The position numbers and the translations under genes were made by a program. Source: a virus. Taken from it: a stretch of 43,901 bases of DNA. The DNA lies in IMG/VR virus record IMGVR_UViG_3300017746_000029, positions 1-43,901 of that record; one strand, written 5' to 3'. The notes beneath the pieces are model-generated. The model saw only the letters and a list, made by a program, of their open reading frames with translations. It ran no database searches and was not told the DNA's origin. Of the stretch, positions 23,970 to 40,477 are shown in pieces (within the stretch, counting starts at the first letter, position 1; the number at the start of each line of letters is the position of its first letter).

Positions 23970-23997
23970 ATAACTAGTATTCTTTTAATAACCATTC

Positions 23998-24005
23998 AAT
24001 AAATA
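23998..24005 (-). promoter_or_regulatory. TATTTATT variant element upstream of the glycosyltransferase genes
   Basis: The coding strand reads TATATTTATTGAATGG, 28 bases before the ATG of the 900-aa transferase, in the only gap (62 bases) between the fibre-linked genes and the transferase genes. Confidence 0.25.
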
Positions 24006-24031
24006 TAAAAATAAATTATTACATATCCAAG

Positions 24032-24751
24032 TTATACTCCAATTATTAATTGAATATTACTTGATAATATACCATTGACACTACCTACATTTCCTGATAC
24101 AACACCATTTACATCATTCGGGTAGCCTGATTGATAAACCCCAGTAACTGCAAGTTGATTTGCAGTTAAGTCAACTGTACTTGTAAGATCAAACCCACTT
24201 CTTCCCACCGGAGGAGCTACTATTAAATAATCATAAGTATAATTAAGTATAATAAAATTGATATTTTGATTATTATTGGCCGCTGAGACGGCTGCAGCAT
24301 TTCCAGTAATTGTAAATGATGAATTTTGAAATGTAGTTGCTGAGGAGAAGGGGGTATTTATATTCCATGCACCATTAACATCCATATCTGTTCCAGAAAG
24401 AAATAGAGAAGAACCACCACTAAAAGCATCTGCTGCACAAACTATTACTGATTGGGTTCCTCCAATTGTACCTAACCCATCAACTCGGAAACCAATAGAT
24501 GTTATATTAGGAGCATATGCACTAAGATCAGCATAACCAAATGTTCTTGCTATACGATATTGAACACTACCTCTCCCTGGAAGTCCTTGTACTGCAATGT
24601 TAGTGACTGATGATGCAGTACCTACTGCTGGTTGAGAAACTGTCCCATTAGGAGCATTATGACAATCTGAAAATACAGTATAAACACCTGTTGTAGGTGT
24701 GGTATATATAGAACCAAGTTGAACAGGAATAGTGTAGGTAAATAATGCCAT
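24032..24751 (-). CDS. Putative fibre-associated adhesin or tip protein
   Basis: A 239-residue protein rich in Ser, Thr, Asn, Gly and Val, with few charged residues and a beta-strand texture. It starts MALFTYTIPVQLGSIYTTP and ends in SGNVGSVNGILSSNIQLIIG. No enzymatic motif or known domain is recognised. It begins 3 bases after the methyltransferase-like gene, which itself follows the giant fibre gene, so it may be a fibre tip, collar or receptor-binding subunit. Two cysteines (about residues 30 and 105) occur in otherwise Cys-poor surroundings. The N-terminus opens directly with beta-like sequence and has no signal peptide, as expected for a virion protein. The role is inferred from position and composition. 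Confidence 0.55.
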   Translation of the reverse strand: MALFTYTIPVQLGSIYTTPTTGVYTVFSDCHNAPNGTVSQPAVGTASSVTNIAVQGLPGRGSVQYRIARTFGYADLSAYAPNITSIGFRVDGLGTIGGTQSVIVCAADAFSGGSSLFLSGTDMDVNGAWNINTPFSSATTFQNSSFTITGNAAAVSAANNNQNINFIILNYTYDYLIVAPPVGRSGFDLTSTVDLTANQLAVTGVYQSGYPNDVNGVVSGNVGSVNGILSSNIQLIIGV

Positions 24752-24754
24752 TAT

Positions 24755-25324
24755 TTAAAACTGCTTTTTAGGTAAATAATATTTATTATGGTTAAAATAA
24801 CTATTTTGAGGAGGATTAATATCATATACATCATAAGTAATATTTGATAACCCAAAAAAGTTACTACCACTAGGAACACCATTCCACCAGGTTGCTCTTC
24901 CACCTTCTTTCATTAATGAAGGTAATATATCTGCAAAGTATTGTATGTTATAATCTCCATAAGTATCATAAAATAACCCATCATAAGTACTTAAAGTATC
25001 TTTTACATCATACCAATCTCCTTCTACTATAGTAACATTAGGTTTATTTGCAGCCCACTCATTTGCTTTTGGAATTATATCTGGGTGGTTTTCTATAATA
25101 GTATGTGAGTTAATTGTATGAGATTGAATGTAATCAGCTGATATATGCATTCCAAATCCTATTTCAAGTATATCTCCTCCTCCTTCACATACATAAGCTG
25201 CAGATGCAGACATTAAAGTATCTTCCCAATCCATCATTACTTCAAAAATTTCATTTTCATAATTTGGATTTGAAAATATTATTTCATTTTCTTCAAATGT
25301 TAAACTTTGAGATATATATTCCAT
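24755..25324 (-). CDS. GAMT/RMT2-like guanidino N-methyltransferase
   Basis: A 189-residue SAM-dependent methyltransferase resembling guanidinoacetate N-methyltransferase (GAMT) and yeast Arg methyltransferase RMT2. FEVMMDWEDTLMSASAAYV parallels the GAMT 'MERWETPYMHALA' region and holds Glu34 at the guanidino-contacting place. DILEIGFGMHISADYIQ (50-66) is the SAM loop, HTIIENHPD the ribose-binding acidic end, and YDGLFYDTYGDY keeps Asp120 where GAMT has its second substrate acid. GAMT is about 236 residues; this protein is shorter at its C-terminus. The gene begins 11 bases after the giant fibre gene. Candidate substrates are guanidinoacetate or another small guanidino compound, or an Arg side chain on a protein. 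The reaction cannot be decided from sequence alone. Confidence 0.65.
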   Translation of the reverse strand: MEYISQSLTFEENEIIFSNPNYENEIFEVMMDWEDTLMSASAAYVCEGGGDILEIGFGMHISADYIQSHTINSHTIIENHPDIIPKANEWAANKPNVTIVEGDWYDVKDTLSTYDGLFYDTYGDYNIQYFADILPSLMKEGGRATWWNGVPSGSNFFGLSNITYDVYDINPPQNSYFNHNKYYLPKKQF

Positions 25325-25335
25325 ATTGTTAATTA

Positions 25336-28300
25336 TTAAGGTAACTCAACCCAAGTATTATCAGGATTAAAGTATATTACTCTATCTGTTAATTGATAAG
25401 CTACTATTCTAACATAATCTCCACTTCCAAAAGCACCAACATTATCAGTTAAACCACCTCCACTTGTTGAAATATATAAAGGAGATCCAATTGTAAAGGT
25501 ATAGTTAGTTGAAGCAAAAGCACCTTTTAATAATACCCCATCACTAACAGGATTATTACTTATGGCTAACCCTACAAAATTTGTTGAATTAGATGATCCA
25601 GCATCTGCTTCAGCCCAACCATTAGCAGATGATAAATATACAACTTCACCAGCAGTAATTGTTGCTGAAGCTGATGCTCCTCCAAAAAATATCTCACCAC
25701 TTGCTTTATTAGTATTGTTAGGAATAGTATAGTGTATAAATCCACTTAAATCAGTTCTATCTGTTCCTAAACCAAATGGACTTTTAATACTTAGGGTTCT
25801 ATTTTGATCTAATACAGCTGACGTACCTCCATCAATAAATAAATCATTTTCAGTTGTAATTGTAATAGAACTACCGGAACCACCTACTACACCACTTGTA
25901 CCTGATGTACCTGATGTACCTGATGAACCTGATCCTCCTGCTACACCTCCAGCACCACCTATACCACTTGAACCTGAAGATCCACTTGTACCTGAGGTAT
26001 TTGATGGAGCACTTGATCCTGCATTACCTGTATTACCTGTAGTACCATTTGAACCTGATGATCCTGAAGTACCTGAAGCTCTACTTAAACCATTTGTACC
26101 TGTATTACCTGATGTACCATTCGAACCACTTGAACCACTAGTACCTGAAGCTTTACTTGCTCCATTTGTACCTTGATCTCCTGAAGTACCATTTGTACCA
26201 CTAGAACCTGAGGTGCCGCTTAAATTACTTGACCCATTTGTACCTGGGTCACCTGAAGTACCATTCGAACCACTTGAACCACTTGTTCCTGATAATTTAC
26301 TTGCTCCATTTGTACCTGTATTACCTGTAGTACCATTTGAACCAGATGATCCTGAAGTACCTGAAGCTTTACTTGCTCCATTAGTACCAACATTACCACT
26401 TGTACCAGCAGTACCGGATGAACCACTTGTACCTGAGGCAGCAGCTGCACCTGATGTACCATCAACACCACTTGTTCCTGAAGAGCCTGATGTATTGCTT
26501 AAACCACTTTGACCTGCATTTCCTGAAGTACCATTTGAACCTGATGATCCCGAAGTACCTGAAGCTTTACTTGCTCCATTTGTACCTGTATTACCTGAAG
26601 TACCAGCAGTACCACTAGAACCTGAAGTACCTGATAATTGACTTGCTCCATTTGTACCTGTATTACCTGAAGTACCGTTTGTACCACTTGATCCTGAAGT
26701 ACCTGAAGCTCTACTTAAACCATTTGTACCTGTGTTACCACTTGTACCATTTGAACCAGATGAACCTGAAGAACCACTTAAAGCACTTGCTCCGTTTCCA
26801 CCTGTAATACCAGTTGTACCTGAGGAACCACTTGAACCACTTGTACCTGAGGCTCTACTTAGGCCATTTGTACCTGTATTACCTGAAGTACCGTTTGTAC
26901 CACTAGAACCTGATGTTCCTGAAGCTTTACTTGCTCCATTTGTACCTTGATCTCCTGAAGTACCATTTGTACCACTAGAACCTGATGTTCCTGAAGCTTT
27001 ACTTAAACCATTTGTACCTGTATTACCACTTGTACCAGCAGTACCACTTGAACCACTTGTACCTGAAGCAGCAGCAGCACCTGATGTACCATCTACACCT
27101 GAAGTACCGGATGAGCCACTTGTATTACTTAATCCTGATTGACCTGCATTACCTGAAGTACCATTTGAACCTGAAGATCCACTTGTACCTGAAGCTCTAC
27201 TTAAACCATTTGTACCTGTATTACCTGAAGTACCGTTTGTACCACTTGATCCTGAAGTACCTGAAGCTTTACTTGCTCCATTTGTACCTTGATCTCCACT
27301 TGTACCTGAAGTACCTGATGAACCTGAAGTACCACTTAAAGCGCTTGCTCCATTAGTACCTTGATTACCAGATGTACCATTCGAACCACTTGAACCACTT
27401 GTACCTGATAATTGACTTGCTCCATTTGTACCTTGATCTCCTGAAGTACCACTTGTACCACTTGAACCACTAGTACCTGAAGCTTTACTTGCTCCATTTG
27501 TACCTGTATTACCTGTAGTACCATTTGTTCCAGATGAACCTGAAGTACCTGAAGCAGCAGCAGCACCTGATGTACCATCTACACCTGAAGTACCGGATGA
27601 GCCACTTGTATTGCTTAAACCTGATTGTCCTGCATTTCCACTTGTACCATTTGAACCTGAAGATCCACTTGTACCTGAAGCTCTACTTAAACCATTTGTA
27701 CCTGTATTACCTGAAGTACCAGCAGTACCACTTGATCCTGAAGTACCTGAAGCTTTACTTGCTCCATTTGTTCCTATGTCACCTGAAGTACCATTAGTAC
27801 CACTTGAACCACTAGTACCTGATTGTCTACTTAATCCTGAAGTTCCTTCTTCACCACTTGTTCCTGATGAACCTGATGTTCCTGCTTCACCACTTGTACC
27901 ATCTACACCTGAGGTACCACTTGAACCGCTTGTATTAGATAATCCACTTTGACCGGCATTACCTGAGGTACCATTTGAACCTGAAGAACCTGAAGTACCT
28001 GATAAGGCACTTTGACCATTAGTTCCTGCATCCCCACTTGTACCATTTGAACCTGAAGATCCACTTGTACCTGATAATTTACTTGCTCCATTTGTACCTT
28101 GATCTCCACTTGTACCTGAAGTACCTGATGAACCTGAAGTACCGCTTAAAGCGCTTGCCCCATTTGTACCTATATTACCTGATGTACCATTTGTTCCAGA
28201 TGAACCACTTGTGCCAGAGGCAGCAGCTGCACCTGATGTACCATCAACACCACTTGTTCCTGATGAACCTGATGTATTAGATAATCCACTTTGGCCTGCA

Positions 28301-31300
28301 TTTCCTGAAGTACCATTTGAACCTGAAGAACCTGAAGTACCTGATAATGCACTTTGACCATTAGTTCCTGCATCTCCGGATGTTCCATTAGATCCTGAAG
28401 ATCCACTTGTACCTGATAATTGACTTGCTCCATTTGTACCTTGATCTCCACTTGTTCCGTTTGTCCCTGATGAACCTGAAGTACCGCTTAAAGCGCTTGC
28501 CCCTGAAGTTCCTGCTTCACCACTTGTTCCTGATGAACCTGAAGTTCCTGCTTCGCCACTTGTACCATCAACACCACTTGTTCCTGAAGAACCTGATGTG
28601 TTGCTTAAACCTGATTGACCTGCGTTACCTGATGTACCATTTGAACCACTTGAACCTGAAGTACCTGATAATGCACTTTGACCATTAGTTCCTGCATCTC
28701 CTGAAGTACCATTTGAACCTGAAGAACCTGAAGTACCACTTAAAGTACTTGCTCCATTTGTTCCTTCATCTCCACTTGTTCCATTTGTCCCTGATGAACC
28801 TGAAGTACCGCTTAAAGCACTTTGTCCATTTGTACCTGCATCACCTGATGTACCATTTGTTCCAGATGAACCTGAAGTACCCGAAGCAGCAGCAGCACCA
28901 CTTGTACCATCAACACCACTTGTACCTGATGAACCTGAAGTATTGCTTAAACCTGATTGTCCTGCATTTCCACTTGTACCATTTGAACCTGAAGAACCTG
29001 AAGTACCTGATAAGGCACTTTGACCATTTGTACCTGTGTCTCCACTAGTACCATTTGTTCCAGATGAACCTGAAGTACCACTTAAAGCACTTGCTCCATT
29101 TGTTCCTTCATCTCCTGAAGTACCGTTTGTACCACTTGAACCACTAGTACCTGATTGTCTACTTAATCCTGAAGTTCCTTCTTCACCACTTGTACCTGAT
29201 GAACCACTTGTACCTGCTTCACCACTTGTACCATCAACACCTGAAGTACCAGATGAACCTGATGTATTACTTAAACCTGATTGTCCTGCATTACCTGATG
29301 ATCCACTTGAACCTGAAGAACCTGAAGATCCACTAGTAATAGATGATCCACTTGTACCTGCTTCACCTGATGTTCCATTAGATCCTGAAGAGCCTGAAGT
29401 ACCACTTAAAGCACTTGCTCCATTTGTACCTTGATCTCCTGAAGTACCATTAGTACCTGAAGAGCCTGAAGTACCTGATAAGGCACTTTCTCCAGATGTA
29501 CCAGCATCCCCACTTGTACCTGATGAACCTGAAGTTCCTGCTTCACCTGAAGTTCCATCAACACCTGAAGTACCAGATGAACCTGATGTATTACTTAATC
29601 CTGATTGTCCTGCATTTCCTGAAGTACCATTTGAACCTGATGATCCACTTGAACCACTAGTAATAGATGATCCACTTGTACCTGCTTCACCTGATGTACC
29701 ATTCGAACCACTTGAACCTGAAGTACCACTTAAAGCACTTGCTCCATTTGTACCTTCATCTCCACTTGTTCCATTTGTCCCTGATGAACCTGATGTGCCA
29801 CTTAAAGCACTTTCTCCAGATGTACCAACGTCTCCACTTGTACCTGATGAACCTGAAGTTCCTGCTTCACCACTTGTACCATCAACTCCACTTGTTCCTG
29901 AAGAACCACTTGTATTGCTTAAACCGCTTTGACCTGCATTTCCACTAGTACCATTTGAACCTGAAGATCCACTTGAACCTGAAGTTTTACTTTCTCCTGA
30001 AGTACCTGCTTCACCTGATGTACCATTTGAACCACTTGAACCTGAAGTACCTGATAATTGACTTGCTCCATTTGTACCTTCATCTCCTGATGTACCATTT
30101 GTACCTGAAGACCCTGAAGTACCGCTTAAAGCACTTTCACCTGAAGTTCCTGCTTCACCACTTGTTCCTGATGAACCTGAAGTTCCTGCTTCACCTGATG
30201 TACCATCTACACCTGAAGATCCTGATGAACCTGATGTGTTACTTAAACCACTTTGACCCGCATTACCACTTGTTCCAGATGAACCTGTAGATCCTGATGA
30301 ACCACTGGTGAATGAAGATCCACTTGTACCTGCTTCACCTGATGTACCATCAACACCTGAAGATCCTGAGGAACCTGATGTATTACTTAAACCTGATTGT
30401 CCTGCATTTCCTGATGATCCACTTGAACCTGAAGAACCTGAAGATCCACTTGTAGCACTTTCTCCAGATGTACCTGTAGAACCACTTGAACCTGAAGTTC
30501 CAGCTTCACCTGAAGTTCCATCTACACCACTTGTTCCTGAAGAACCACTTGTATTACTTAATCCTGATTGCCCTGCATTACCTGAGGTACCATTTGAACC
30601 TGAAGATCCACTTGAACCTGAAGTTTTACTTTCACCTGAAGTACCTGCTTCACCTGATGTACCATCTACACCTGAAGATCCTGATGAACCTGATGTGTTA
30701 CTTAAACCACTTTGACCCGCATTACCTGAAGAACCACTTGAACCTGAAGAACCTGAAGATCCACTTGTAGCACTTTCTCCGGATGTACCTGTAGAACCGC
30801 TTGAACCTGAAGTTCCTGCTTCACCTGATGTGCCATCCACACCACTTGTTCCTGAGGAACCACTTGTATTACTTAAACCACTTTGGCCTGCATTTCCACT
30901 TGATCCTGAAGAACCACTAGAACCACTTGAACCTGAAGTATTACTTTCACCTGAAGTTCCTGCTTCGCCACTTGTACCATCAACACCACTTGTTCCTGAA
31001 GAACCTGATGTGTTGCTTAAACCTGATTGACCTGCGTTACCTGAAGAACCACTTGAACCTGAAGAACCTGATGAACCACTTGTAGCACTTTCTCCAGATG
31101 TACCTGTAGAACCTGAAGATCCACTTGTACCTGCTTCGCCACTTGTACCATCAACACCTGAAGATCCTGATGAACCTGATGTGTTAGATGATCCACTTTG
31201 ACCTGCATTTCCGGATGAACCTGAAGAACCACTTGATCCTGAAGAACCACTAGAACCACTTGAACCTGAAGTGTTACTTTCACCTGAAGTACCTGCTTCA

Positions 31301-32211
31301 CCACTTGTACCATCTACACCTGAAGTACCAGATGAACCTGATGTATTACTTAAACCTGATTGTCCTGCATTTCCTGATGAACCTGAAGAACCACTTGATC
31401 CTGAAGATCCACTTGTATCACTTAAACCTGAAGTACCGGAAGTGCCTGTAAATCCACTAAGACCTGAGGTGCCACTTGTACCATTTGAACCTGATTGTCC
31501 TGCTGTACCTGAAGAACCACTTGAACCTGAGGATCCACTTGTACCACTAGTATCTGATGTACCTGATGTACCTGAAGTTCCATTAGCACCTGATGAACCG
31601 ACAGCACCACTTGTACCACTAGTACCACCATCACCTGATGATCCTGATGATCCTGAAGTACCTGAAGTACCACTTACTCCAGTTGTACCATTTGAACCTG
31701 AAAATCCGCTTGTACCACTTGTTACATCTACAAATCCAATAACACCTGAAGTAGGATTATATGTTACTATTTCTGGTCTATCTTGTAAAGGTAAAGGTGT
31801 TATTTTAAATTCCTCACCCCCACTTATATCAAGAATTACACTACCTGTAACACTAAGAGGACCTAAAATTTGGGCTGATCCTGTAAATGGAAAACCTGCA
31901 CCACTTCCCCCGCCTTCTAATGTAATGTCAACACCACTAGGACCATTAGGAACTATACTAGCAACACCTGCTCCTAAAAAATTAAGATTATTTACTCCTG
32001 TGCCTATAACAACAGTATCTTTTTCAACTGTTACTCCAGAAAAACCTGGGACTTGACTTAAATCGACACTATGTGTTACACTACTACTTGCAAAAAAGAA
32101 TTGAAGATCGGCACCAGACAGAGAACTAGAGTAGTAGAGCGACTGAAAATTGCCGTCTACTTCTGCGAATGTTAACTCGGAACCTTTGTTCTGTCTTAAT
32201 ATTATACCCAT
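25336..32211 (-). CDS. Giant collagen-like Gly-X-Y fibre protein
   Basis: A 2291-residue protein, the largest in the window. Residues 1-164 form the N-terminal part, including SELTFAEVDGNFQSL, a motif common at the virion end of phage fibres. Residues ~165-2114 are Gly-X-Y triplets dominated by GTS, GSS, GTN, GSN and GEA, nearly proline-free, with regular interruptions where Gly is replaced (GASALSGTSG, GLSNTSG). A longer unit with NAGQSG and VDGTSG occurs 18 times. The last 177 residues are a globular C-terminal domain (AGEVVYLSSANGWAEADAG, ending DNTWVELP). If triple-helical, the repeat would span about 0.55 micrometre. It is very rich in Ser and Thr, hence a plausible O-glycosylation target for the transferases nearby. 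It follows the gp15-like gene by 34 bases. Confidence 0.85.
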   Translation of the reverse strand: MGIILRQNKGSELTFAEVDGNFQSLYYSSSLSGADLQFFFASSSVTHSVDLSQVPGFSGVTVEKDTVVIGTGVNNLNFLGAGVASIVPNGPSGVDITLEGGGSGAGFPFTGSAQILGPLSVTGSVILDISGGEEFKITPLPLQDRPEIVTYNPTSGVIGFVDVTSGTSGFSGSNGTTGVSGTSGTSGSSGSSGDGGTSGTSGAVGSSGANGTSGTSGTSDTSGTSGSSGSSGSSGTAGQSGSNGTSGTSGLSGFTGTSGTSGLSDTSGSSGSSGSSGSSGNAGQSGLSNTSGSSGTSGVDGTSGEAGTSGESNTSGSSGSSGSSGSSGSSGSSGNAGQSGSSNTSGSSGSSGVDGTSGEAGTSGSSGSTGTSGESATSGSSGSSGSSGSSGNAGQSGLSNTSGSSGTSGVDGTSGEAGTSGESNTSGSSGSSGSSGSSGNAGQSGLSNTSGSSGTSGVDGTSGEAGTSGSSGSTGTSGESATSGSSGSSGSSGSSGNAGQSGLSNTSGSSGSSGVDGTSGEAGTSGESKTSGSSGSSGSNGTSGNAGQSGLSNTSGSSGTSGVDGTSGEAGTSGSSGSTGTSGESATSGSSGSSGSSGSSGNAGQSGLSNTSGSSGSSGVDGTSGEAGTSGSSFTSGSSGSTGSSGTSGNAGQSGLSNTSGSSGSSGVDGTSGEAGTSGSSGTSGEAGTSGESALSGTSGSSGTNGTSGDEGTNGASQLSGTSGSSGSNGTSGEAGTSGESKTSGSSGSSGSNGTSGNAGQSGLSNTSGSSGTSGVDGTSGEAGTSGSSGTSGDVGTSGESALSGTSGSSGTNGTSGDEGTNGASALSGTSGSSGSNGTSGEAGTSGSSITSGSSGSSGSNGTSGNAGQSGLSNTSGSSGTSGVDGTSGEAGTSGSSGTSGDAGTSGESALSGTSGSSGTNGTSGDQGTNGASALSGTSGSSGSNGTSGEAGTSGSSITSGSSGSSGSSGSSGNAGQSGLSNTSGSSGTSGVDGTSGEAGTSGSSGTSGEEGTSGLSRQSGTSGSSGTNGTSGDEGTNGASALSGTSGSSGTNGTSGDTGTNGQSALSGTSGSSGSNGTSGNAGQSGLSNTSGSSGTSGVDGTSGAAAASGTSGSSGTNGTSGDAGTNGQSALSGTSGSSGTNGTSGDEGTNGASTLSGTSGSSGSNGTSGDAGTNGQSALSGTSGSSGSNGTSGNAGQSGLSNTSGSSGTSGVDGTSGEAGTSGSSGTSGEAGTSGASALSGTSGSSGTNGTSGDQGTNGASQLSGTSGSSGSNGTSGDAGTNGQSALSGTSGSSGSNGTSGNAGQSGLSNTSGSSGTSGVDGTSGAAAASGTSGSSGTNGTSGNIGTNGASALSGTSGSSGTSGTSGDQGTNGASKLSGTSGSSGSNGTSGDAGTNGQSALSGTSGSSGSNGTSGNAGQSGLSNTSGSSGTSGVDGTSGEAGTSGSSGTSGEEGTSGLSRQSGTSGSSGTNGTSGDIGTNGASKASGTSGSSGTAGTSGNTGTNGLSRASGTSGSSGSNGTSGNAGQSGLSNTSGSSGTSGVDGTSGAAAASGTSGSSGTNGTTGNTGTNGASKASGTSGSSGTSGTSGDQGTNGASQLSGTSGSSGSNGTSGNQGTNGASALSGTSGSSGTSGTSGDQGTNGASKASGTSGSSGTNGTSGNTGTNGLSRASGTSGSSGSNGTSGNAGQSGLSNTSGSSGTSGVDGTSGAAAASGTSGSSGTAGTSGNTGTNGLSKASGTSGSSGTNGTSGDQGTNGASKASGTSGSSGTNGTSGNTGTNGLSRASGTSGSSGSSGTTGITGGNGASALSGSSGSSGSNGTSGNTGTNGLSRASGTSGSSGTNGTSGNTGTNGASQLSGTSGSSGTAGTSGNTGTNGASKASGTSGSSGSNGTSGNAGQSGLSNTSGSSGTSGVDGTSGAAAASGTSGSSGTAGTSGNVGTNGASKASGTSGSSGSNGTTGNTGTNGASKLSGTSGSSGSNGTSGDPGTNGSSNLSGTSGSSGTNGTSGDQGTNGASKASGTSGSSGSNGTSGNTGTNGLSRASGTSGSSGSNGTTGNTGNAGSSAPSNTSGTSGSSGSSGIGGAGGVAGGSGSSGTSGTSGTSGVVGGSGSSITITTENDLFIDGGTSAVLDQNRTLSIKSPFGLGTDRTDLSGFIHYTIPNNTNKASGEIFFGGASASATITAGEVVYLSSANGWAEADAGSSNSTNFVGLAISNNPVSDGVLLKGAFASTNYTFTIGSPLYISTSGGGLTDNVGAFGSGDYVRIVAYQLTDRVIYFNPDNTWVELP
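25870..31719 (-). repeat. Gly-X-Y coding repeat array
   Basis: About 5.85 kb of 9-bp-periodic, internally repetitive DNA encoding fibre residues ~165-2114. The downstream part (about 25870-29000) uses GTNG/GASK/GLSR-type units, and the upstream part (about 29000-31700) is richer in SSGSSGSSG units, so different expansions are layered. Long shadow frames rich in Pro, Glu and Val on the opposite strand are a by-product. Confidence 0.9.
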
Positions 32212-33795: not shown

Positions 33796-34959
33796 TTATC
33801 CTATATAAATAGGAAAGGGAACATTAGCTAATTCATCTTGTACAAATTTACTTTCTGCTGCTCTTCTTTCCAATAATTTTTCTCTTGATGTTTCTCCTAA
33901 ATAAGCTCTTAATCTATCAATTAGTCTTTCTTTTTCACCTGTAGCTGCTGTAATTAAATCATTAGCATTTAATGTTACATTATCTCCAGGAATTGGAACT
34001 ACTTGATATTTACCTCTAATATACCCTAACATTTCTTTACATAAAGCTAAAGCATATTCAAATATCCAACTTCTACCAACTGAATTAATATCATCATAAT
34101 TTGGGTTAGTATAAGGAACATCATAAATATTAGAAATAGTACTACTTCCTCCTACTACAAAAGATGCAGATGATCTTTCTGAGTTAAGAATATATTCAAA
34201 ATACAATTTTGGAACTGATCCATCAGGTATAGGGAATATTCTTAATTTATTATTATGCATTTCAAAAGAATAATTAGCTCTTCTGATCATATCATTAAAT
34301 TCAATAGTTTGAATTACTTGTAAATCATAATTAATGGGCATAAGTAAAAAGTCAACACCAGCAGGTGAATAACCATCCCAACCAAAAGTATCCATTAAAT
34401 TCATAGTACCCATTCCAGTACCAATGTATGGATCAAAATATCTTAAAATTGCAGGAGGTGCTTCATAAAACACTCTCATAATTTCTATGTCATGATCTTT
34501 GTAATGAGGAATGTTTGCTTTTGCCCAAGCTTCTAAATCATAATCCTGGATTGATGCTGTTAAATCAACTGAACCCTTATGCCAATCTACATTCCCACCT
34601 GTTCCTGCTTCAACACCATATTGTTCTGAAATTTGGATAATTCTTCCTAAGTTAGGAACAACTACAGTATTTTCAATATCCATTGTTGCTGAATCTGCTC
34701 CTTCAAGGGTTAAATAGTTATCTCTAATTTTAAACCCATACAATTCATTAGCATAAATTGTAACAGCTTCTTCTAGGGCAGCATAAAAGTTATATTTTTG
34801 CAGTTCAATATCTACAATAGGATAACCTAATCTCCTAGCTGCAAAAGTTGCAAATTTATCTGCATCAATTTGAAATTCAGGATCATTATCATAAAACCCA
34901 AAAGGTGTATCTCCTGGGTGAAATGAGCTAGATCCGGGCCATATTGCTATATTTGCCAT
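33796..34959 (-). CDS. gp13-like neck / head-tail connector protein
   Basis: A 387-residue protein of gp13 type. Recognisable segments are FAARRLGYPIVDIELQKYNF followed by YAALEEAVTIYANELYGFK, which is a common N-terminal block in neck proteins of marine T4-like phages. Others are WIFEYALALCKEMLGYIRGK and GEKERLIDRLRAYLGETSRE near the C-terminus. It would bind the portal after packaging and form the neck with gp14. T4 gp13 has 309 residues, so this one is longer, with extra loops in the middle (YFDPYIGTGMGTMNLMDTFG). It lies 10 bases after the 437-aa virion protein gene and one base before the gp14-like gene. Confidence 0.7.
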   Translation of the reverse strand: MANIAIWPGSSSFHPGDTPFGFYDNDPEFQIDADKFATFAARRLGYPIVDIELQKYNFYAALEEAVTIYANELYGFKIRDNYLTLEGADSATMDIENTVVVPNLGRIIQISEQYGVEAGTGGNVDWHKGSVDLTASIQDYDLEAWAKANIPHYKDHDIEIMRVFYEAPPAILRYFDPYIGTGMGTMNLMDTFGWDGYSPAGVDFLLMPINYDLQVIQTIEFNDMIRRANYSFEMHNNKLRIFPIPDGSVPKLYFEYILNSERSSASFVVGGSSTISNIYDVPYTNPNYDDINSVGRSWIFEYALALCKEMLGYIRGKYQVVPIPGDNVTLNANDLITAATGEKERLIDRLRAYLGETSREKLLERRAAESKFVQDELANVPFPIYIG

Positions 34960-34969
34960 ATTTTTTTAT

Positions 34970-36283
34970 TTACACGTTATCTGAGTTAACAACTACATAT
35001 TCAACGTCCATTCTTTCTGTTTCAGAATATACAGAAACAAATTCTATATCTTGCTCAAAAAAGCCGTTAAATGTACTTCCTGTAACTTGTGGACTTGAAA
35101 ACATTAAAGATGAAGTAGGTAATACATCCATCGTCCAATAACTTCTTGATCCATTTTCTGTAAAATCATTTAATGCTAAAGTAAATATTGCATCTGTAGT
35201 ATTTCCTATCTCTGAACCGTTTACAGTAACAGTTTCTCCAACTTCATAACCACTACCACCATCTACTATTTTTGCTTGAAATACGCCTGTAGTTATATTA
35301 CTACCGGTTAAAGCTAATAGAGAAGCTCCACTTGAATTTTCTACATCATCAACTAAAAGAGTACAAGTATAATCTGAACTTACATTTCCAAATCCAACAT
35401 TTATCAATTGGGCTTGTGAAATAGTAATTACTTGACCTTGTTGATATCCAGTTCCTATATTTACTGGGGTTACTGTTGAAACTACCCCACCAACTGATCT
35501 TACATTAACTGTACCTCCTTGACCTGTAGTTGTATAAACTGCTATTTCTCTTGTTATATCATTTGATACATTAGGAATTAAACCATTATTAGTAAAAGGT
35601 TGGGCAGTTACTAATTGTCCTACTCCTAAATCTCCTGATGCTATTGATAATACATCTCCTACTACATATCCCCTTCCAGGATTATCAACTGTAACTGTTG
35701 ATAAAGTTGGTGTTGATGGGTTAGCTCCTGTAACTACAGCTGTAGCTGTTGCACCTGTACCACTTCCTCCTACTAAGTTTACTGTATAAGTTCCGGTTGC
35801 ACAATCATCAGGAGCAAGATTTATTCCTAAACTTTGATTTGCTATTAATGATGAAGAAACTACTACATCTAATGTCATCCCACTACCACTTACACTTGCT
35901 GTAGTTGGTACAGCTGCGTAAAATCCAATTACTCCCCCAGAACCACCACTGGTATAAGATGATGTTAGGTCAGTGCCTACAACGCCTACCCCATTTGGGG
36001 ATTTAGAAGAGGTGAAAGAAACTGCTAATGAAGATGTTGTATCTAAATTAGTAATTCTAGCATACTTCATACTACTTGAAGGAAAAGTACCAGCAGAAGG
36101 ATTTACTCCATTGACATTAAATAAATCAATTGAAGTTTGTGCCGGTATTGTAACTATTCTTCTGTCTACATTAGTAATATTACCTAATGTGGAAAAAGTT
36201 TCATTTGTAGTTTTAATACCTTTAACTACGTGTTCCTCCTTAATTTTAATCTGAAATGCTGATGGAGTTAGTATTGATGCCAT
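34970..36283 (-). CDS. Virion protein carrying the same repeat module as the sheath
   Basis: A 437-residue protein. The N-terminal ~125 residues (MASILTPSAFQIKIKEEHVV, IPAQTSIDLFNVNG, MKYARITNLDTTSSLAVSFT) and the last ~60 residues (SYWTMDVLPTSSLMFSSPQV) look like one structural beta domain split by an insertion. Residues ~130-372 are three Gly/Thr/Val-rich repeats with GGSGTGATATAVVTG, PGRGYVVGDVLSIASGDLG, IGTGYQQGQVITISQAQLI and GGSGYEVGETVTVNGSEIG. They correspond one by one to the insertion in the sheath. The gene comes first in the neck transcription unit, after a terminator and a TATTTATA element. It may decorate the neck or head, or be a collar/whisker component. The host domain is not recognised. 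Confidence 0.6.
   Translation of the reverse strand: MASILTPSAFQIKIKEEHVVKGIKTTNETFSTLGNITNVDRRIVTIPAQTSIDLFNVNGVNPSAGTFPSSSMKYARITNLDTTSSLAVSFTSSKSPNGVGVVGTDLTSSYTSGGSGGVIGFYAAVPTTASVSGSGMTLDVVVSSSLIANQSLGINLAPDDCATGTYTVNLVGGSGTGATATAVVTGANPSTPTLSTVTVDNPGRGYVVGDVLSIASGDLGVGQLVTAQPFTNNGLIPNVSNDITREIAVYTTTGQGGTVNVRSVGGVVSTVTPVNIGTGYQQGQVITISQAQLINVGFGNVSSDYTCTLLVDDVENSSGASLLALTGSNITTGVFQAKIVDGGSGYEVGETVTVNGSEIGNTTDAIFTLALNDFTENGSRSYWTMDVLPTSSLMFSSPQVTGSTFNGFFEQDIEFVSVYSETERMDVEYVVVNSDNV
35168..35896 (-). repeat. Three-repeat GSGTG/GSGY module in the 437-aa virion protein
   Basis: Encodes residues ~130-372. The units follow the same order as in the sheath insertion at 15163-15945, with the best match between TYTVNLVGGSGTGATAT here and SYSVNLTNGSGTGAVAT there. 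Confidence 0.7.
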
Positions 36284-36307: not shown

Positions 36308-36339
36308 AAAAAAAGGGACTTATTTGATAAAGCCCCTTT
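36308..36339 (-). terminator. Intrinsic terminator after phoH
   Basis: On the minus strand AGGGGCTTTAT pairs with ATAAGTCCCT (one G-T pair, one bulged T) across a short CAA-type loop, followed by seven T. It starts 11 bases after the phoH stop and closes the auxiliary cassette. Confidence 0.75.
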
Positions 36340-36350
36340 AATTTACAAAT

Positions 36351-37085
36351 TTATCTTTTACTTTTACCACTAGTACCAGAAGATCCCAATTTTATACCTT
36401 GGGCACTTGCTTCTTCATATACTTGAATTAAATCATCTACAATTGGATCCCTATGATTCTGTAGTAATGTTATTCCAATTGCATTTTTAATTGCACGCAT
36501 TGATTTATATAAAAATCTAAATCCAGATTCTCGTTTTGATTTTAAATCAACCTGATGATCATCACCACATATAATCATTTTAGAACGCAAACCAATTCTA
36601 GTCGCTATCATTTCCATTTGTTCATGAGTAACGTTTTGGGCTTCATCTACAATTATACATGAATCCAAAAATGTTCTACCTCTCATAAATGCTAAAGGTA
36701 CGATTTCAATTTTACCATCTTCAATAAGTTTTTCTACTTTTACTTTATCATATAAAGCAAACATATTTTGATAGATTGGTTGAATCCATGGATCCATTTT
36801 TTCTCGTAAATCACCAGGTAAAAATCCTATCTCTTCTTTTGATACTGTAGGTCTAGTAATAATAATTTTTTCATAATGTCTTCTAAGAAGACCATCTAAT
36901 GCAACTTGAACCGCTAATAATGTTTTACCTGAGCCTGCTTTACCAGCTAACATTGTTATTGTATTTTCTAGTATTTTAGCCTTAGCATCTTTTTGCTCTT
37001 CATTTAATGTGATCTTAAATTTAATTGGATTTTTAATTACTCTTTGTTTTCGGTGCACTTCGTCTGTGTGGGGTTTTGAGGCCAT
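36351..37085 (-). CDS. phoH: PhoH-like P-loop ATPase
   Basis: A 244-residue PhoH-family protein. Walker A is GKAGSGKT at residues 48-55, preceded by ITMLA; the family motif VSKEEIGFLPGDLREKMDPW lies at 81-100; Walker B is IIVDEAQN at 144-151; and a sensor-like MIICGDDHQVDLK follows. PhoH proteins are frequent in marine phages. They are ATPases with a proposed RNA- or phosphate-stress-related role that is not settled. The start codon lies 53 bases inside the end of the phosphatidylserine decarboxylase gene, so translation is coupled. The last residues (GSSGTSGKSKR) happen to resemble the fibre repeat. It is the last gene before a terminator. Confidence 0.93.
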   Translation of the reverse strand: MASKPHTDEVHRKQRVIKNPIKFKITLNEEQKDAKAKILENTITMLAGKAGSGKTLLAVQVALDGLLRRHYEKIIITRPTVSKEEIGFLPGDLREKMDPWIQPIYQNMFALYDKVKVEKLIEDGKIEIVPLAFMRGRTFLDSCIIVDEAQNVTHEQMEMIATRIGLRSKMIICGDDHQVDLKSKRESGFRFLYKSMRAIKNAIGITLLQNHRDPIVDDLIQVYEEASAQGIKLGSSGTSGKSKR

Positions 37086-37800
37086 TTGTTTTTGGGTTAA
37101 TTTTAATTAATTTATCGAGCCCAGCATTGATATGCATTGTATTATCTAAAACTGTCTCGAAATCATACCTAGAATCTAAGGGTAGAACTAAATCTACTTG
37201 TGACCCCCATCTTATTAAACTGAATCTTTCATTTTGGGTACATAGATCCTTTTGTTGTTTAAAAGGGGCTATAACGTTTACATCTTCATCAGCAATTTGG
37301 ATTAAATAGTATGTGTAATCTAAAGAAGGAACATACACTTGATTAAACATTCTTTCGTTGTACTTTAAGTACTCCATGTTATTAGGGTTGATTACTTTAT
37401 TTAAAATATCCTTCTCCACTGCTAACATGGGTTTGTTCATTGATTCAATAGGTTCCATATGTTTGTATTTTAATATACCACCATAAGGAATTCTATTAAT
37501 ATGAACATCATAAAACGACATGAAAATTCCAATAACTAAAGAAGGTTTATTATATTCACTATCCCCCATAACATCTTGGATAGTGTAATCAATACCTTTT
37601 ATTTCTAAAACTTGTTCATTTGGTTGAACAACTTTTTGATATAATATAGTTCCATCGGCTGGACTATAAAAGTGTTCGTGATCTATATAGGTTGGTCTAA
37701 TTGGGTCTCTAAAGAAAAAAGTATTACTTAATTCACCAACAGATAATTTTGATAATTCAGCTACTTCTCCATTTAACCAATCTTCTAATTTTTCAGCCAT
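37033..37800 (-). CDS. psd: Phosphatidylserine decarboxylase
   Basis: A 255-residue pyruvoyl enzyme that would convert phosphatidylserine to phosphatidylethanolamine. FFFRDPIRP and SPADGTIL (Asp49) are present, FMSFYDVHINRIP supplies His100, and IRWGSQVDLVLP holds the self-cleavage Gly199-Ser200 (LGST in E. coli). All three members of the known Asp-His-Ser self-processing triad are therefore conserved, so the enzyme is probably active. There is no N-terminal membrane helix, so it would associate with the membrane peripherally. Its ATG shares one base with the upstream stop (TAATG), and its end overlaps phoH by 53 bases. The last ~45 residues are basic and extend past the usual end. The enzyme may tune host membrane lipid during infection; that purpose is inference. 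Confidence 0.88.
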   Translation of the reverse strand: MAEKLEDWLNGEVAELSKLSVGELSNTFFFRDPIRPTYIDHEHFYSPADGTILYQKVVQPNEQVLEIKGIDYTIQDVMGDSEYNKPSLVIGIFMSFYDVHINRIPYGGILKYKHMEPIESMNKPMLAVEKDILNKVINPNNMEYLKYNERMFNQVYVPSLDYTYYLIQIADEDVNVIAPFKQQKDLCTQNERFSLIRWGSQVDLVLPLDSRYDFETVLDNTMHINAGLDKLIKINPKTNGLKTPHRRSAPKTKSN

Positions 37801-38714
37801 TATAAAAGAGTTTTGAAATGATCTACTCTATTTAAATGCATTACCATACAAGATAACATAGCACCTGATTTCATATATTCTGATAAATTAAATATTACAG
37901 GTTCCATTCCTTCATTAGAACATATTTTTTCTAGTGAAGATATTTTATGTTTTTCACCTTCATAAAATTCATCTGATTTTTTAAGTTCTGAAATATTAGA
38001 TGCACATAATATCATATTTCCTAATCTAACAGAATTAGCCATTCCATACATAGAATCTTCAACATCTATGTCTACTATATTTGTATATTTGCTTATTTCA
38101 GCTAACTCTTTCTTATCATATAATTCAGTACAAACCATACTTGAATTGGTATTTAACGGGAATATACTGCAATCTAGGTGGTACATATATTCATCTACCA
38201 TTTCAACTTTAATAATTTCCATATCAAAGTTATTTTCCATCCATTCATAAGTTTTAATATCAGAACGAATACCATATCCACCAATATAAACATTATCTTT
38301 TAAATATTTAATATCAGCTTCACCTTCCCATTTATGAGGTGAAATATGAGTTTTATAACCCATTTGATTAAAGAATTTTTGACCTACATATTCTTCACCT
38401 TGTCTTGGAGGAGAAGTATAATTAGATAATAATATATGATTTTCTTTACAAATATGAGGTAAATGTAATCCTAAATTTGCAACATAAACTAAATCTTGAA
38501 AATTACCTTCAGCTGGGAGTAAATGTACTAATGATTGACCTGCCATAAAGTTATATAAATCCATAAATTGTTTATATGCTTTTGGCCTATTAACTGATAA
38601 TTCTTCTTGGGACATTTCTTTCATCCAAACATTATTCGGATCATTTGTATTGAAAGTAAATGGAAAATTCATTACGTAACTTTGAATTGGTAACTGGGAT
38701 GGGGTTTCTTTCAT
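37800..38714 (-). CDS. Pentein-superfamily amidinotransferase / dimethylargininase-like enzyme
   Basis: A 304-residue protein with the guanidino-modifying (pentein) pattern. Visible landmarks are NNVWMKEM, NFQDLVYVANLGLHL (substrate-binding Asp73), HKWEGEADIKYLK (Glu130/Asp134), IGGYGIR, MYHLDCSIFPL (catalytic His179) and KSGAMLSCMVMHL (nucleophile Cys289). All catalytic positions appear intact. Family members include glycine/arginine amidinotransferases, arginine deiminase and dimethylarginine hydrolase, and sequence reading alone does not decide among them. It is the first gene after the capsid terminator, has its own TATTTATA element, and is followed without a gap by psd and phoH. A GAMT-like enzyme is encoded elsewhere in the window, so an amidino-transfer plus methylation route is conceivable. 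Confidence 0.75.
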   Translation of the reverse strand: MKETPSQLPIQSYVMNFPFTFNTNDPNNVWMKEMSQEELSVNRPKAYKQFMDLYNFMAGQSLVHLLPAEGNFQDLVYVANLGLHLPHICKENHILLSNYTSPPRQGEEYVGQKFFNQMGYKTHISPHKWEGEADIKYLKDNVYIGGYGIRSDIKTYEWMENNFDMEIIKVEMVDEYMYHLDCSIFPLNTNSSMVCTELYDKKELAEISKYTNIVDIDVEDSMYGMANSVRLGNMILCASNISELKKSDEFYEGEKHKISSLEKICSNEGMEPVIFNLSEYMKSGAMLSCMVMHLNRVDHFKTLL

Positions 38715-38744: not shown

Positions 38745-38752
38745 TATAAATA
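38745..38752 (-). promoter_or_regulatory. TATTTATA element upstream of the auxiliary cassette
   Basis: The coding strand reads AGTATATTTATACACG, 30 bases before the ATG and after the capsid gene terminator, consistent with the start of a new transcript. Confidence 0.4.
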
Positions 38753-38785: not shown

Positions 38786-38813
38786 AAAAAAAAAGCCCCG
38801 CTAATGCGGGGCT
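38786..38813 (-). terminator. Strong intrinsic terminator after the major capsid gene
   Basis: On the minus strand AGCCCCGC-ATTA-GCGGGGCT forms a perfect 8-bp stem followed by nine T. It starts 26 bases after the capsid gene stop and is the most GC-rich element of the region. Confidence 0.93.
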
Positions 38814-38839
38814 CTTTATTATTAATTATAATCTATTGA

Positions 38840-40477
38840 TTATAGAGTGTTTAATCCTTCTACGAAGATCTTACCATAGAATTCTGGTCTTACGACTTTC
38901 TTAGCGTAACGAGTCAATAATCCTTTACGTGGAGTGAAGGTATTTGGATCGTATACTAGAGGAGTCATAATTAACGGAATGTATGGAGCAAATACAGCAC
39001 CAGCTTCTAAGAACTGACCACCACGGAAACCTAATAAGATAGTGTTTTCAGTCATGTATGGGTTCTTATAAACAGTGTATCTAGAATTGATAGTACCTGC
39101 TTTTTGTACACCAAATGCGTAGCTCATTTTAGCAGCATCACCATCAGAAGTACTAGCAAATCCTGGAATAGATTCGATAATAGTAGCTACTGTTGGAGAA
39201 CATACTAAGAAATTAGCTCCACCTCTAAGAGTTTTCTGGTGAATGATGTTACTCAACTTTTGGATTTTAGTTCCTAAAGTTTGGAACCATTGTCCTTGTG
39301 AGTTGTAGAAACCTAAATCAGCATCAACAACACCTGTTGAAGCTAATGATAAGTTATTTTGAGCTGACCAATATTCAGTTCCTGCGTTTGCAGATTCGAT
39401 CAACATATCAAGAATTTCTAAGTCGATTTCTAATGAAATGTACTCACTCATGATAGATGTCAATTCAGCTTCAGCATCCAAAGAATGGTAAGCGTTAAGA
39501 TCTTGAGCGAACTCAGGAGTCCAAACAGCTTTAAGCTTTCTTGTTTTAGCAACAATAGCGCTTGATTCCATTTGAATGTTAATCTCAGGAATAGAGATTG
39601 GATCATTATCAGCATTTAAGTTAGTGTTACCATCTTCAAAATCACCTCTTTGAGCGTCATTTGTTTGGAGTAAGTAAACAACTTTTAAAGCACCTGCTTC
39701 AACAACATCAGAACCTACGAAGAATTCGATGTCACCACCGTTAAGCTTAGTAAATTGTGGGTATTGAGTAGCAGCAGCTGGTAAATCAGCAGCTGAACCT
39801 GAAAGGTAGAAACCTTTAACAGCTCTTTCATCAAAGTTAGGTAATGATGAAGTTGGGACAGTTAATTTTACGATTTGACCTGAAGCACCAGCAACATAAG
39901 ATTGTGATACTGAAGAATCAGCTTGTAAATCAGTATACCAATCAACAGAACCAGAAGCTACAGTATAAGCAGCTGACTGAGTATTGTTGATAGAATAACC
40001 AAATCTACCAGCACCATAAAGACCGCCTGTAGCTCCGTTACCGAATGGGTTGTTACCATCTTTATCACCGTACAATGATTGTCCAGCTGTAAATGGTTCT
40101 TTAGTAGTTCCGTATTGGAAATCTAAATAAAATACTAGACCAGAAGGAAGGTTCATTGGTTGAACTGAAACGAATTCTTTCGCTGCAATTTGACCAAATA
40201 CTTTTCTTACTAATGGTAGAGCAACACCAGCCCATTGTGCACCTGTTCCAGGAGTAAATGTACCTGCACCAGGAAGTGGACCACCTGTGTTACTTTCTTC
40301 CATAACCAATTGCTTGGCTTGGTTTTCAAGAATAAGAGACATATTGTTTTTCTCAGTTTCGCTTCCGATACCTTCTAACAAGCCTGTCTTATTCCATTTG
40401 TTGGCTAATCTTGCAGCATCACTTTGTAGTGATTTGTAAGGGTTAGCGCTTTCTAAAAGAGAATTTAATTGACTCAT
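38840..40477 (-). CDS. gp23: Major capsid protein (gp23)
   Basis: A 545-residue T4-type major capsid protein. GVALPLVRKVFGQIAAKEFV, SVQPMNLPSGLVFYLDFQYG, KTRKLKAVWTPEFAQDLNAY, HSLDAEAELTSIMSEYISLE and NPYMTENTILLGFRGG are characteristic. It has the HK97 fold and would form hexamers of the head. A probable prohead protease cut lies after Glu60 in LVME/ESNTGG, which aligns with T4 gp23 FLTE/AEIGG, so about 60 residues would be removed on maturation. It follows gp21 and gp22 as in T4, 44 bases after gp22, and ends at the strongest terminator in the window. Codon use favours more C and G than neighbours at many positions, as expected for the most expressed protein. Confidence 0.95.
   Translation of the reverse strand: MSQLNSLLESANPYKSLQSDAARLANKWNKTGLLEGIGSETEKNNMSLILENQAKQLVMEESNTGGPLPGAGTFTPGTGAQWAGVALPLVRKVFGQIAAKEFVSVQPMNLPSGLVFYLDFQYGTTKEPFTAGQSLYGDKDGNNPFGNGATGGLYGAGRFGYSINNTQSAAYTVASGSVDWYTDLQADSSVSQSYVAGASGQIVKLTVPTSSLPNFDERAVKGFYLSGSAADLPAAATQYPQFTKLNGGDIEFFVGSDVVEAGALKVVYLLQTNDAQRGDFEDGNTNLNADNDPISIPEINIQMESSAIVAKTRKLKAVWTPEFAQDLNAYHSLDAEAELTSIMSEYISLEIDLEILDMLIESANAGTEYWSAQNNLSLASTGVVDADLGFYNSQGQWFQTLGTKIQKLSNIIHQKTLRGGANFLVCSPTVATIIESIPGFASTSDGDAAKMSYAFGVQKAGTINSRYTVYKNPYMTENTILLGFRGGQFLEAGAVFAPYIPLIMTPLVYDPNTFTPRKGLLTRYAKKVVRPEFYGKIFVEGLNTL

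What the first reader, a model, noticed from the sequence alone, without database searches (positions are those of the whole stretch)
36351..38714. Auxiliary cassette of amidinotransferase-like enzyme, Psd and PhoH between head and neck genes
Three tightly overlapping metabolic genes are bracketed by two terminators and begin with their own TATTTATA element, as an insertable unit. Psd retains its self-cleavage Ser and triad, so phage-directed production of phosphatidylethanolamine is plausible. Coupling of a lipid enzyme to a guanidino enzyme is not something I can explain from known pathways.
Basis: partly seen in the sequence, partly recalled or inferred. Interest (0 to 1): 0.5.

Follow-up and report, generated by a model that had tools for sequence, protein, structure and literature searches.

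The report
Phage arginine-to-amine two-enzyme module
Between a marine phage's capsid gene and its phoH gene sit two enzymes, labelled in some relatives as making a membrane lipid and moving a guanidino group, that come and go together and probably instead turn the amino acid arginine into a small amine such as putrescine.

Summary
The three genes are real, but the mobile unit is two genes. In relatives the guanidino enzyme and the Psd-like gene are present together or absent together (capsid-anchored: 15 both, 53 neither, 0 single of 68; PhoH-anchored: 37, 24, 0 of 61). PhoH, the terminator and a TAT[T/G]TATA element remain at empty sites. The capsid tree needs at least 7 gains/losses. The pair recurs in Campylobacter and Bacteroides phages.

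The "amidinotransferase" keeps the active site of arginine dihydrolase ArgZ/AgrE, including Asn71 and Cys264. "Psd" is a separate subfamily without a hydrophobic segment; 8 of 11 bacteria carrying it also have an ordinary Psd. In bacteria the two genes are adjacent in 12 of 16 genomes, 7 with a MATE exporter; in a cyanobacterium without any Psd a PLP amino-acid decarboxylase sits in its place.

Best reading: arginine -> ornithine -> putrescine, not phosphatidylethanolamine. Activity is untested; the fold comparison does not settle the substrate, and no spermidine synthase or SpeD was found in the phage records searched.

The parts
37800..38714 (-). ArgZ/AgrE-like arginine dihydrolase (guanidino-modifying enzyme, 304 aa); first gene of the two-gene unit
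   Evidence: ArgZ/AgrE active-site positions incl. N71 (=N80) and C264 (=C289) kept; ArgZ/AgrE are the top structural matches (Z 16.7-17.5)
37033..37800 (-). Psd-family pyruvoyl decarboxylase of a separate subfamily (255 aa); proposed amino-acid (ornithine) decarboxylase
   Evidence: PF02666 88.6 bits; D49, H100, G199-S200 kept; no hydrophobic segment; subfamily-specific D171, D173, L126, E129
36351..37085 (-). PhoH-like ATPase; backbone gene, not part of the mobile unit; start codon lies inside the Psd-like gene
   Evidence: PF02562 215 bits; retained where the pair is absent
38745..38752 (-). TATTTATA promoter-like element upstream of the unit; a backbone element seen at 9 gene starts in the window
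   Evidence: a TAT[T/G]TATA element is kept at 9 of 9 empty sites printed
38790..38817 (-). intrinsic terminator after the major capsid gene (left boundary; kept at empty sites)
   Evidence: z -5.6
36312..36339 (-). intrinsic terminator after PhoH
   Evidence: z -4.2
38840..40477 (-). gp23-like major capsid protein, upstream flank of the slot
   Evidence: PF07068 261 bits

Best explanation
The mobile unit is two genes that encode consecutive steps of one soluble pathway. The first is an ArgZ-like arginine dihydrolase (L-arginine -> L-ornithine + 2 NH3 + CO2). The second is a Psd-family pyruvoyl enzyme that has become a free amino-acid decarboxylase, most likely L-ornithine -> putrescine + CO2. 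Placed behind the promoter-like element that otherwise precedes phoH, beside the head genes, the pair would supply putrescine (and ammonia) late in infection, when polyamines can neutralise DNA being packaged and support translation. Shown here: the two-gene unit, its joint gain and loss, the ArgZ active site, the distinct Psd subfamily without a hydrophobic segment, and the bacterial gene pair. Inferred: both activities, the substrate of the decarboxylase, the order of steps, late expression and the use of the product.
For: Coupling: both-or-neither at the slot, 52 both, 77 neither, 0 single in 129 informative loci of the capsid- and PhoH-anchored scans (some contigs are in both; 31 further loci were too short); 9 changes on a capsid tree of 90 rows, at least 7 on starred branches. 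In isolates the 45 records with the Psd-like gene all have the guanidino gene, and 45 of 46 the other way round (the exception, PP921807, shows a 35% fragment; a 19%-identity Xanthomonas DDAH was left out; in PV052264 both genes are in pieces), although in Campylobacter phage NCTC12673 the two lie 42 kb apart. Step 1: ArgZ/AgrE D65, R90, E118, R139, H168, D170, N219, C264 in 20 of 20 relatives, N22 in 19 (one row truncated), N71 in 19; ArgZ/AgrE top the fold comparisons (Z 16.7-17.5, AstB 13.5-14.1, DDAH up to 13.4). Step 2: catalytic D49/H100/G199-S200 in 16 of 16, subfamily-specific D171 (16/16; G or A in 7/7 ordinary Psd) and D173 (15/16); maximum 19-aa hydropathy 0.88-1.11 in phage and 0.86-1.42 in bacterial members, against 2.29-2.33 in three ordinary Psds of the same genomes; 8 of 11 bacteria have an ordinary Psd besides. 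Bacterial pair: adjacent in 12 of 16 genomes, a MATE exporter downstream on the same strand in 7 (Pfam-confirmed for 4 of the 7); in Dulcicalothrix, without any PF02666 match, an Orn/Arg/DAP-type PLP decarboxylase is next to the dihydrolase. Precedent: PsiD is a Psd-family free-amino-acid decarboxylase (PMC12603985, passages). Selection: dN/dS 0.054-0.086 and 0.068-0.078 in 4 pairs, below the capsid gene's 0.088-0.132 in each pair.
Against: No activity or substrate is shown. No spermidine synthase (PF01564, 0 of 11 phage records) and no SpeD (PF02675, 0 of 15) was found, so the phages would rely on the host beyond putrescine. Of the 4 bacterial dihydrolase genes without the Psd-like gene, 3 have no decarboxylase that I recognised beside them (L174, L310, L311). 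The PLP decarboxylase in Dulcicalothrix scores best as diaminopimelate decarboxylase (135 bits, below cut-off; the ornithine/lysine decarboxylase model gives 37) and lies by an NRPS-like ORF. In Bacteroides and Campylobacter phages the genes lie mostly among replication and nucleotide genes, so packaging is not the only possible use. The Psd-like model is poor (pLDDT 68); Foldseek has no match under E 0.001; in the second alignment E. coli Psd (Z 10.2) ranks above PsiD (7.9), and sugar-transport IIA proteins score as high as Psd (Z 9.8-10.0), so the fold comparison says little about substrate. Two of the five ordinary Psds measured, of the E. coli-like type, also lack a clear membrane segment (1.75-1.82, internal). 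11 of the 13 bacterial loci are MAGs, so the presence of a second Psd partly rests on binning; the Streptomyces isolate has both. NCBIfam cut-offs are missed for both proteins.
Confidence: 0.5

Rival explanations
1. True phosphatidylserine decarboxylase: the phage raises phosphatidylethanolamine in the host membrane, and the guanidino enzyme is an unrelated passenger.
For: PF02666 match above cut-off; catalytic residues kept; E. coli Psd is the only sequence match in the PDB at E up to 10 and heads the fold alignment, tied with IIA sugar-transport proteins (Z 10).
Against: Separate subfamily without a hydrophobic segment; 8 of 11 bacteria have an ordinary Psd as well; both-or-neither coupling to an arginine enzyme in phages and adjacency to it, often with a MATE exporter, in bacteria; NCBIfam Psd cut-offs missed by a wide margin.
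Confidence: 0.12
2. Reversed order: the Psd-like enzyme is an arginine decarboxylase (agmatine) and the guanidino enzyme hydrolyses agmatine to putrescine.
For: An Aspergillus arginine decarboxylase is among the fold matches, weakly (Z 7.3 and 7.1); SpeD-derived pyruvoyl arginine decarboxylases are known in phages (PMC9992855, passages).
Against: The guanidino enzyme keeps both ArgZ arginines R90 and R139, which by recall of the DDAH/ArgZ structures hold the substrate carboxylate, absent from agmatine; its nearest solved relatives are arginine, not agmatine, enzymes.
Confidence: 0.13
3. Nitrogen release or arginine depletion is the point: the dihydrolase frees two ammonia per arginine (as ArgZ does in cyanobacteria, recalled) and the decarboxylase only pulls ornithine away.
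For: ArgZ active site; a MATE exporter in 7 of 12 bacterial gene pairs could remove a cationic end product.
Against: Does not explain by itself why the two genes are never separated at the phage slot; contigs with and without the pair come from the same metagenome in at least one case (3300000115: L337 with, L322 without).
Confidence: 0.12
4. The pair makes a different amine (a specialised cationic metabolite, or a building block for modified DNA bases).
For: MATE exporter in bacteria; NRPS-like neighbour in Dulcicalothrix (by eye); nucleotide and replication neighbours in Bacteroides phages.
Against: In the marine phages the unit is just two genes; by eye I saw no further enzyme shared by phage and bacterial loci, but no systematic comparison of all genes was run.
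Confidence: 0.13

Closest known systems
ArgZ/AgrE arginine dihydrolase (N-terminal domain), cyanobacteria
   Same: Active-site positions incl. N71, C264; best sequence and fold match among solved structures
   Different: About 20-24% identity in the fold alignments; no ornithine cyclodeaminase domain; far below the NCBIfam cut-off (88 of 450 bits); paired with a Psd-like decarboxylase
Phosphatidylserine decarboxylase (PF02666)
   Same: Asp, His, Gly-Ser self-cleavage site; above the Pfam cut-off
   Different: No hydrophobic segment; own insertion and acidic residues; tied to an arginine enzyme; lies beside an ordinary Psd in 8 of 11 genomes
PsiD, and an Aspergillus oryzae arginine decarboxylase (Psd-like folds acting on free amino acids)
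   Same: Psd family used on a free amino acid (PsiD: passages of PMC12603985; weak fold hits); kinship of the Aspergillus enzyme to Psd is recalled
   Different: Fungal, larger, 8-13% identity in the fold alignments; not found by sequence profile
Phage pyruvoyl ornithine/arginine decarboxylases derived from SpeD (PMC9992855, PMC10407285)
   Same: Same proposed role: phage-encoded pyruvoyl enzyme towards putrescine
   Different: Different protein family; the main texts of both hold 0 occurrences of phosphatidylserine, dihydrolase and Campylobacter; PMC9992855 reports no arginase homologue in phages (passage)
Fletchervirus 'amidinotransferase' and 'phosphatidylserine decarboxylase' annotations (e.g. 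NCTC12673 gp044, gp085)
   Same: Homologues with the same residues (35-40% identity)
   Different: Genes far apart in that genome; the feature notes that I saw do not link them

Membership tests
Arginine dihydrolase (ArgZ/AgrE) | Catalytic Cys264, His168, Glu118 | tested here: met
   C, H, E in 20 of 20 relatives aligned to 6 cyanobacterial ArgZ-type proteins
Arginine dihydrolase (ArgZ/AgrE) | Asn71 (mutated in PDB entry 6juz; its role in separating dihydrolase from deiminase is recalled) | tested here: met
   N in 19 of 20, window N80; one MAG (L170) has S
Arginine dihydrolase (ArgZ/AgrE) | NCBIfam NF052232 curated cut-off | tested here: not met
   88.1 of 450 bits: described as ArgZ-like, outside the equivalog
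Arginine dihydrolase (ArgZ/AgrE) | Conversion of arginine to ornithine + 2 NH3 + CO2 | not testable with these tools
   needs enzyme assay
Phosphatidylserine decarboxylase | Pfam PF02666 above gathering score | tested here: met
   88.6 of 22 bits
Phosphatidylserine decarboxylase | Self-cleavage Gly-Ser with catalytic Asp and His | tested here: met
   D49, H100, G199-S200 in 16 of 16
Phosphatidylserine decarboxylase | Hydrophobic membrane segment as in ordinary Psd of the same genomes | tested here: inconclusive
   max 19-aa hydropathy 0.88-1.11 (143 phage ORFs, 77 distinct) and 0.86-1.42 (11 bacterial), against 2.29-2.33 in 3 ordinary Psd; but 2 of the 5 ordinary Psd measured, E. coli-like in sequence, reach only 1.75-1.82, at internal positions
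Phosphatidylserine decarboxylase | NCBIfam Psd equivalog cut-offs | tested here: not met
   best 72 of 225 bits
Phosphatidylserine decarboxylase | Activity on phosphatidylserine | not testable with these tools
   needs enzyme assay or lipidomics
Known phage polyamine genes (SpeD-derived decarboxylase, spermidine synthase) | PF02675 or PF01564 in the same genomes | tested here: not met
   PF02675 0 of 15 records, PF01564 0 of 11 records; several records are fragments
Accessory (gain/loss) phage gene unit | Presence/absence at one site with conserved boundaries | tested here: met
   both or neither in 68 and 61 informative loci; in 9 empty sites printed the capsid stop and PhoH start are 80-298 nt apart with terminator and promoter-like element kept

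The most novel reading that the evidence does not exclude
Phages of at least three lineages and scattered bacteria share an undescribed two-enzyme arginine-to-putrescine route in which a phosphatidylserine-decarboxylase-family protein has become an ornithine decarboxylase: a new kind of polyamine decarboxylase, hidden under lipid-enzyme or 'hypothetical' names, and picked up and dropped by phages as a unit.
Probability: 0.4. Interest if true: 0.8.

Novelty: new variant of a known kind. Interest (0 to 1): 0.6.

Why it matters
It replaces a puzzling "lipid plus guanidino" cassette by one testable pathway; suggests that phage and bacterial "psd" genes of this subfamily are misnamed, so that surveys counting them as lipid genes may misread them (PMC11360552 lists psd as an ocean-virus gene, section 14 read; whether its psd genes are of this subfamily was not tested); and would add a second, independent pyruvoyl route to polyamines in phages beside the SpeD-derived one.

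Tried and rejected
Three-gene cassette with PhoH: rejected, PhoH remains at empty sites. Own promoter and terminator in front: rejected. Amidinotransferase name: not favoured; SxtG and AGAT rank well below ArgZ (Z 12.3 and 11.5 against 17.5). Anti-phage defence role: no PADLOC match for 4 proteins. Pair elsewhere in genomes with an empty slot: dihydrolase profile found in none of 19 records (the tool warns that fragments and an empty list show little; the same profile did match its starting genomes). Phylum samples with the dihydrolase profile: 395, 386, 396 and 347 genomes of the phyla of G020 (Saprospiraceae), G017 (Dulcicalothrix), G016 (Streptomyces) and G012 (Acidobacteria MAG) gave close relatives (over 360 bits) in 2, 1, 3 and 1, starting genomes included; 5 further Bacteroidota matches of 91-103 bits were left out as another subfamily. 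Sequence profiles of the Psd-like family did not find PsiD or the Aspergillus enzyme in the PDB. Of 9 ordinary Psd loci fetched (L265-L272, L276), my script captured 7 for the alignment (L271, L272 dropped) and 5 for hydropathy. Papers on ArgZ and AgrE are not held. Paper searches: one paper names both enzymes with phage, PMC11360552, in other contexts; none for Campylobacter phage + phosphatidylserine decarboxylase; none for phosphatidylserine decarboxylase + ornithine decarboxylase + pyruvoyl; none for the Aspergillus enzyme; PMC2853527 (passage) mentions a putative glycine amidinotransferase in CP220/CPt10 in clusters with radical-SAM genes, a different setting. The PhoH dN/dS figures are out of frame and discarded. 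The dihydrolase- and Psd-anchored loci are biased to carry the pair and were not used for presence/absence counts.
Full report
What is there. The window is a 43.9-kb IMG/VR virus record with T4-like head genes. On the minus strand the order is gp23 capsid gene (38840-40477), guanidino enzyme (37800-38714), Psd-like gene (37033-37800), PhoH (36351-37085), a 437-aa ORF (34970-36283) and a gp13-like neck gene (33796-34959). Overlaps are 1 nt and 53 bp. Terminators lie after the capsid gene and after PhoH.

The unit is two genes. I scanned IMG/VR with the capsid protein and with PhoH, neither of which selects for the pair. The tool keeps only the best 80 of 594 and of 501 confirmed hits. Of 80 capsid loci, 12 had under 1.1 kb downstream; of the other 68, 15 have both genes, 53 neither, 0 one. 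Of 80 PhoH loci, 19 had under 850 bases upstream; of 61, 37 have both, 24 neither, 0 one. Some contigs occur in both sets. On a quick maximum-likelihood tree of 90 different capsid proteins (29 with, 61 without) the state needs 9 changes, at least 7 on starred branches; shuffled labels need about 25; recombination between phages could add to or hide changes. Near relatives of the window lack the pair: L395, with PhoH 97% and capsid protein 86% identical, has the capsid stop, the terminator, a TATGTATAAT element and PhoH within 102 nt. Searching 19 pair-negative records (18 viral contigs of 21-163 kb and immuto) with the dihydrolase profile found no copy elsewhere. The same slot can hold other cargo, for example a 525-aa ORF in L330 that looks like a homing endonuclease and fibre-like ORFs in L416, L420 and L363 (names are my reading of the sequences).

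The promoter is not the cassette's. TATTTATA occurs 13 times on the coding strand; 9 copies lie 13-38 nt upstream of one of the 31 gene starts I listed, although the 80-nt stretches upstream of those starts make up 5.6% of the window. The number of sites alone is not above chance. The motif resembles the T4 late promoter TATAAATA (recalled). Nine of nine empty sites that I printed keep a terminator and a TAT[T/G]TATA element before PhoH. The pair therefore appears to have slipped in behind an existing promoter, and in the window PhoH now starts inside the Psd-like gene.

First enzyme. The closest solved proteins by sequence are AgrE and ArgZ; by fold they are again first (Foldseek E 6e-12; Z 16.7-17.5 over 205-210 residues at 2.8-3.0 A, then AstB 13.5-14.1, DDAH up to 13.4; model pLDDT 71). 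I aligned 6 cyanobacterial ArgZ-type proteins, which score 1369-1417 bits against a cut-off of 1025, with 20 relatives of the window enzyme: 5 phage (the window included) and 15 bacterial. N22, D65, N71, R90, E118, R139, H168, D170, N219, C264 correspond to window N28, D74, N80, R104, E130, R150, H179, D181, N227, C289; all are kept in 20 of 20 except N22 (one row is truncated there) and N71 (S in one MAG). N71 and C264 are the residues mutated in PDB entries 6juz, 6jv1 and 6lrh (titles). That R90 and R139 hold the substrate carboxylate, and that N71 separates dihydrolase from deiminase, is recalled.

Second enzyme. It passes the Psd Pfam cut-off but misses every listed NCBIfam Psd cut-off by far. 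Against ordinary Psd from the same bacterial genomes (7 of 9 loci captured) the 16 family members (5 phage, 11 bacterial, three of them near copies) keep D49, H100, G199-S200 but share features absent from ordinary Psd: D171 (16/16), D173 (15/16), an insertion with L126 and E129 (16/16), Q201 (15/16). They have no hydrophobic segment; three ordinary Psds have a clear one, two E. coli-like ones do not. Thirteen bacterial genomes were searched with PF02666: of the 11 with the Psd-like gene, 8 have an ordinary Psd too (114-199 bits), 3 do not; G017 and G019 have no PF02666 at all. The AlphaFold model is poor (68): Foldseek puts PsiD, a tryptophan decarboxylase, first with E 0.03; the second aligner puts E. 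coli Psd first (Z 10.2), tied with IIA sugar-transport proteins (9.8-10.0), then PsiD 7.9 and an Aspergillus arginine decarboxylase 7.3 and 7.1. This agrees with the Psd fold and does not show the substrate.

Bacterial gene pair. The dihydrolase profile found 14 loci in GTDB genomes: one is phage DNA in a Flavobacteriales MAG (L163), 13 are cellular at 41-52% identity, 11 of them MAGs. Phylum samples added 3 (1,524 genomes in four samples, starting genomes included). Of these 16, 12 have the Psd-like gene adjacent (in G018 at a contig end), and 7 of the 12 have a MATE exporter downstream on the same strand, in L301 about 1.4 kb away (Pfam confirms 4 of these 7, plus one on the other strand in L169/L303). 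The four without the Psd-like gene: Dulcicalothrix (PLP Orn/Arg/DAP decarboxylase next door), a Rhodospirillaceae MAG, G224 and G914.

Other phages. In GenBank phages the Psd-like gene is in 45 records (39 Campylobacter, 6 Bacteroides) and the dihydrolase relative in 46 (a Xanthomonas DDAH at 19% left out); 45 records have both. The Campylobacter records are near relatives, some of them RefSeq copies, and count as about one event. In NCTC12673 the genes are 42 kb apart; in Bacteroides phage DAC19 they are adjacent among ligase, helicase, dUTPase, primase and a homing endonuclease.

Mechanism. The most economical reading is arginine -> ornithine -> putrescine, with the Psd-like protein as the decarboxylase. 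It explains the coupling in phages and bacteria, the MATE exporter (a class that often exports cations, recalled) and the replacement by a PLP amino-acid decarboxylase in an organism without Psd. Polyamines neutralise packaged DNA in T4 (recalled), and here the genes lie with head genes; but the other phage lineages keep them elsewhere, so packaging is only one possible use. Both genes are under strong purifying selection (dN/dS 0.054-0.086 and 0.068-0.078 in four pairs; capsid 0.088-0.132).

Novelty. Phage pyruvoyl ornithine and arginine decarboxylases derived from SpeD are known, as are viral arginases (PMC9992855, passages; PMC10407285, passages); neither main text contains the words phosphatidylserine or dihydrolase. 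In the listings of the searches that bore on the pair (one search showed 20 of 51 papers) I saw no paper that links a Psd-family enzyme with an arginine dihydrolase, in phages or bacteria; subscription journals are mostly not in that library. I therefore call it a new variant of a known kind, with the activities unproved.

Noticed in passing
window 25336-32211 (-): 2291-aa protein made mostly of SGTSG-type repeats, probably a fibre (by eye from the ORF list)
   Followed up: no
window 18618-25324 (-): Cluster of glycosyltransferase- and methyltransferase-like ORFs among tail genes (by eye from the ORF list)
   Followed up: no
window 34970-36283 (-): 437-aa ORF whose first ~93 residues match in many relatives while the rest often does not; its inner part looks like a stretch of the 855-aa ORF at 13789-16356 (by eye)
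   Followed up: partly
window, 9 sites such as 16673, 18617, 32230, 36304, 38752 (-): TATTTATA 13-38 nt upstream of gene starts: probable late promoter of this phage group
   Followed up: yes
L365 6620-8077: PhoH-like ORF apparently interrupted by a long insertion (intein- or homing-type, by eye)
   Followed up: no
L330 8656-10333; L416, L420, L363 between capsid gene and PhoH: Other cargo in the same slot: endonuclease-like ORF, and fibre-like ORFs beginning MPNLPIS
   Followed up: partly
L172 / L306 (Dulcicalothrix): Dihydrolase, PLP decarboxylase and agmatine-deiminase-like gene beside an NRPS-like ORF and transporter-like genes: possible natural-product cluster
   Followed up: partly
L310 9243-11048 (-): Dihydrolase relative next to an ATP-grasp-like ORF (by eye; NCBIfam found nothing), without a decarboxylase
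   Followed up: no
L002 11835-12809: GMP-reductase-like gene near the pair in Bacteroides phage DAC19
   Followed up: no
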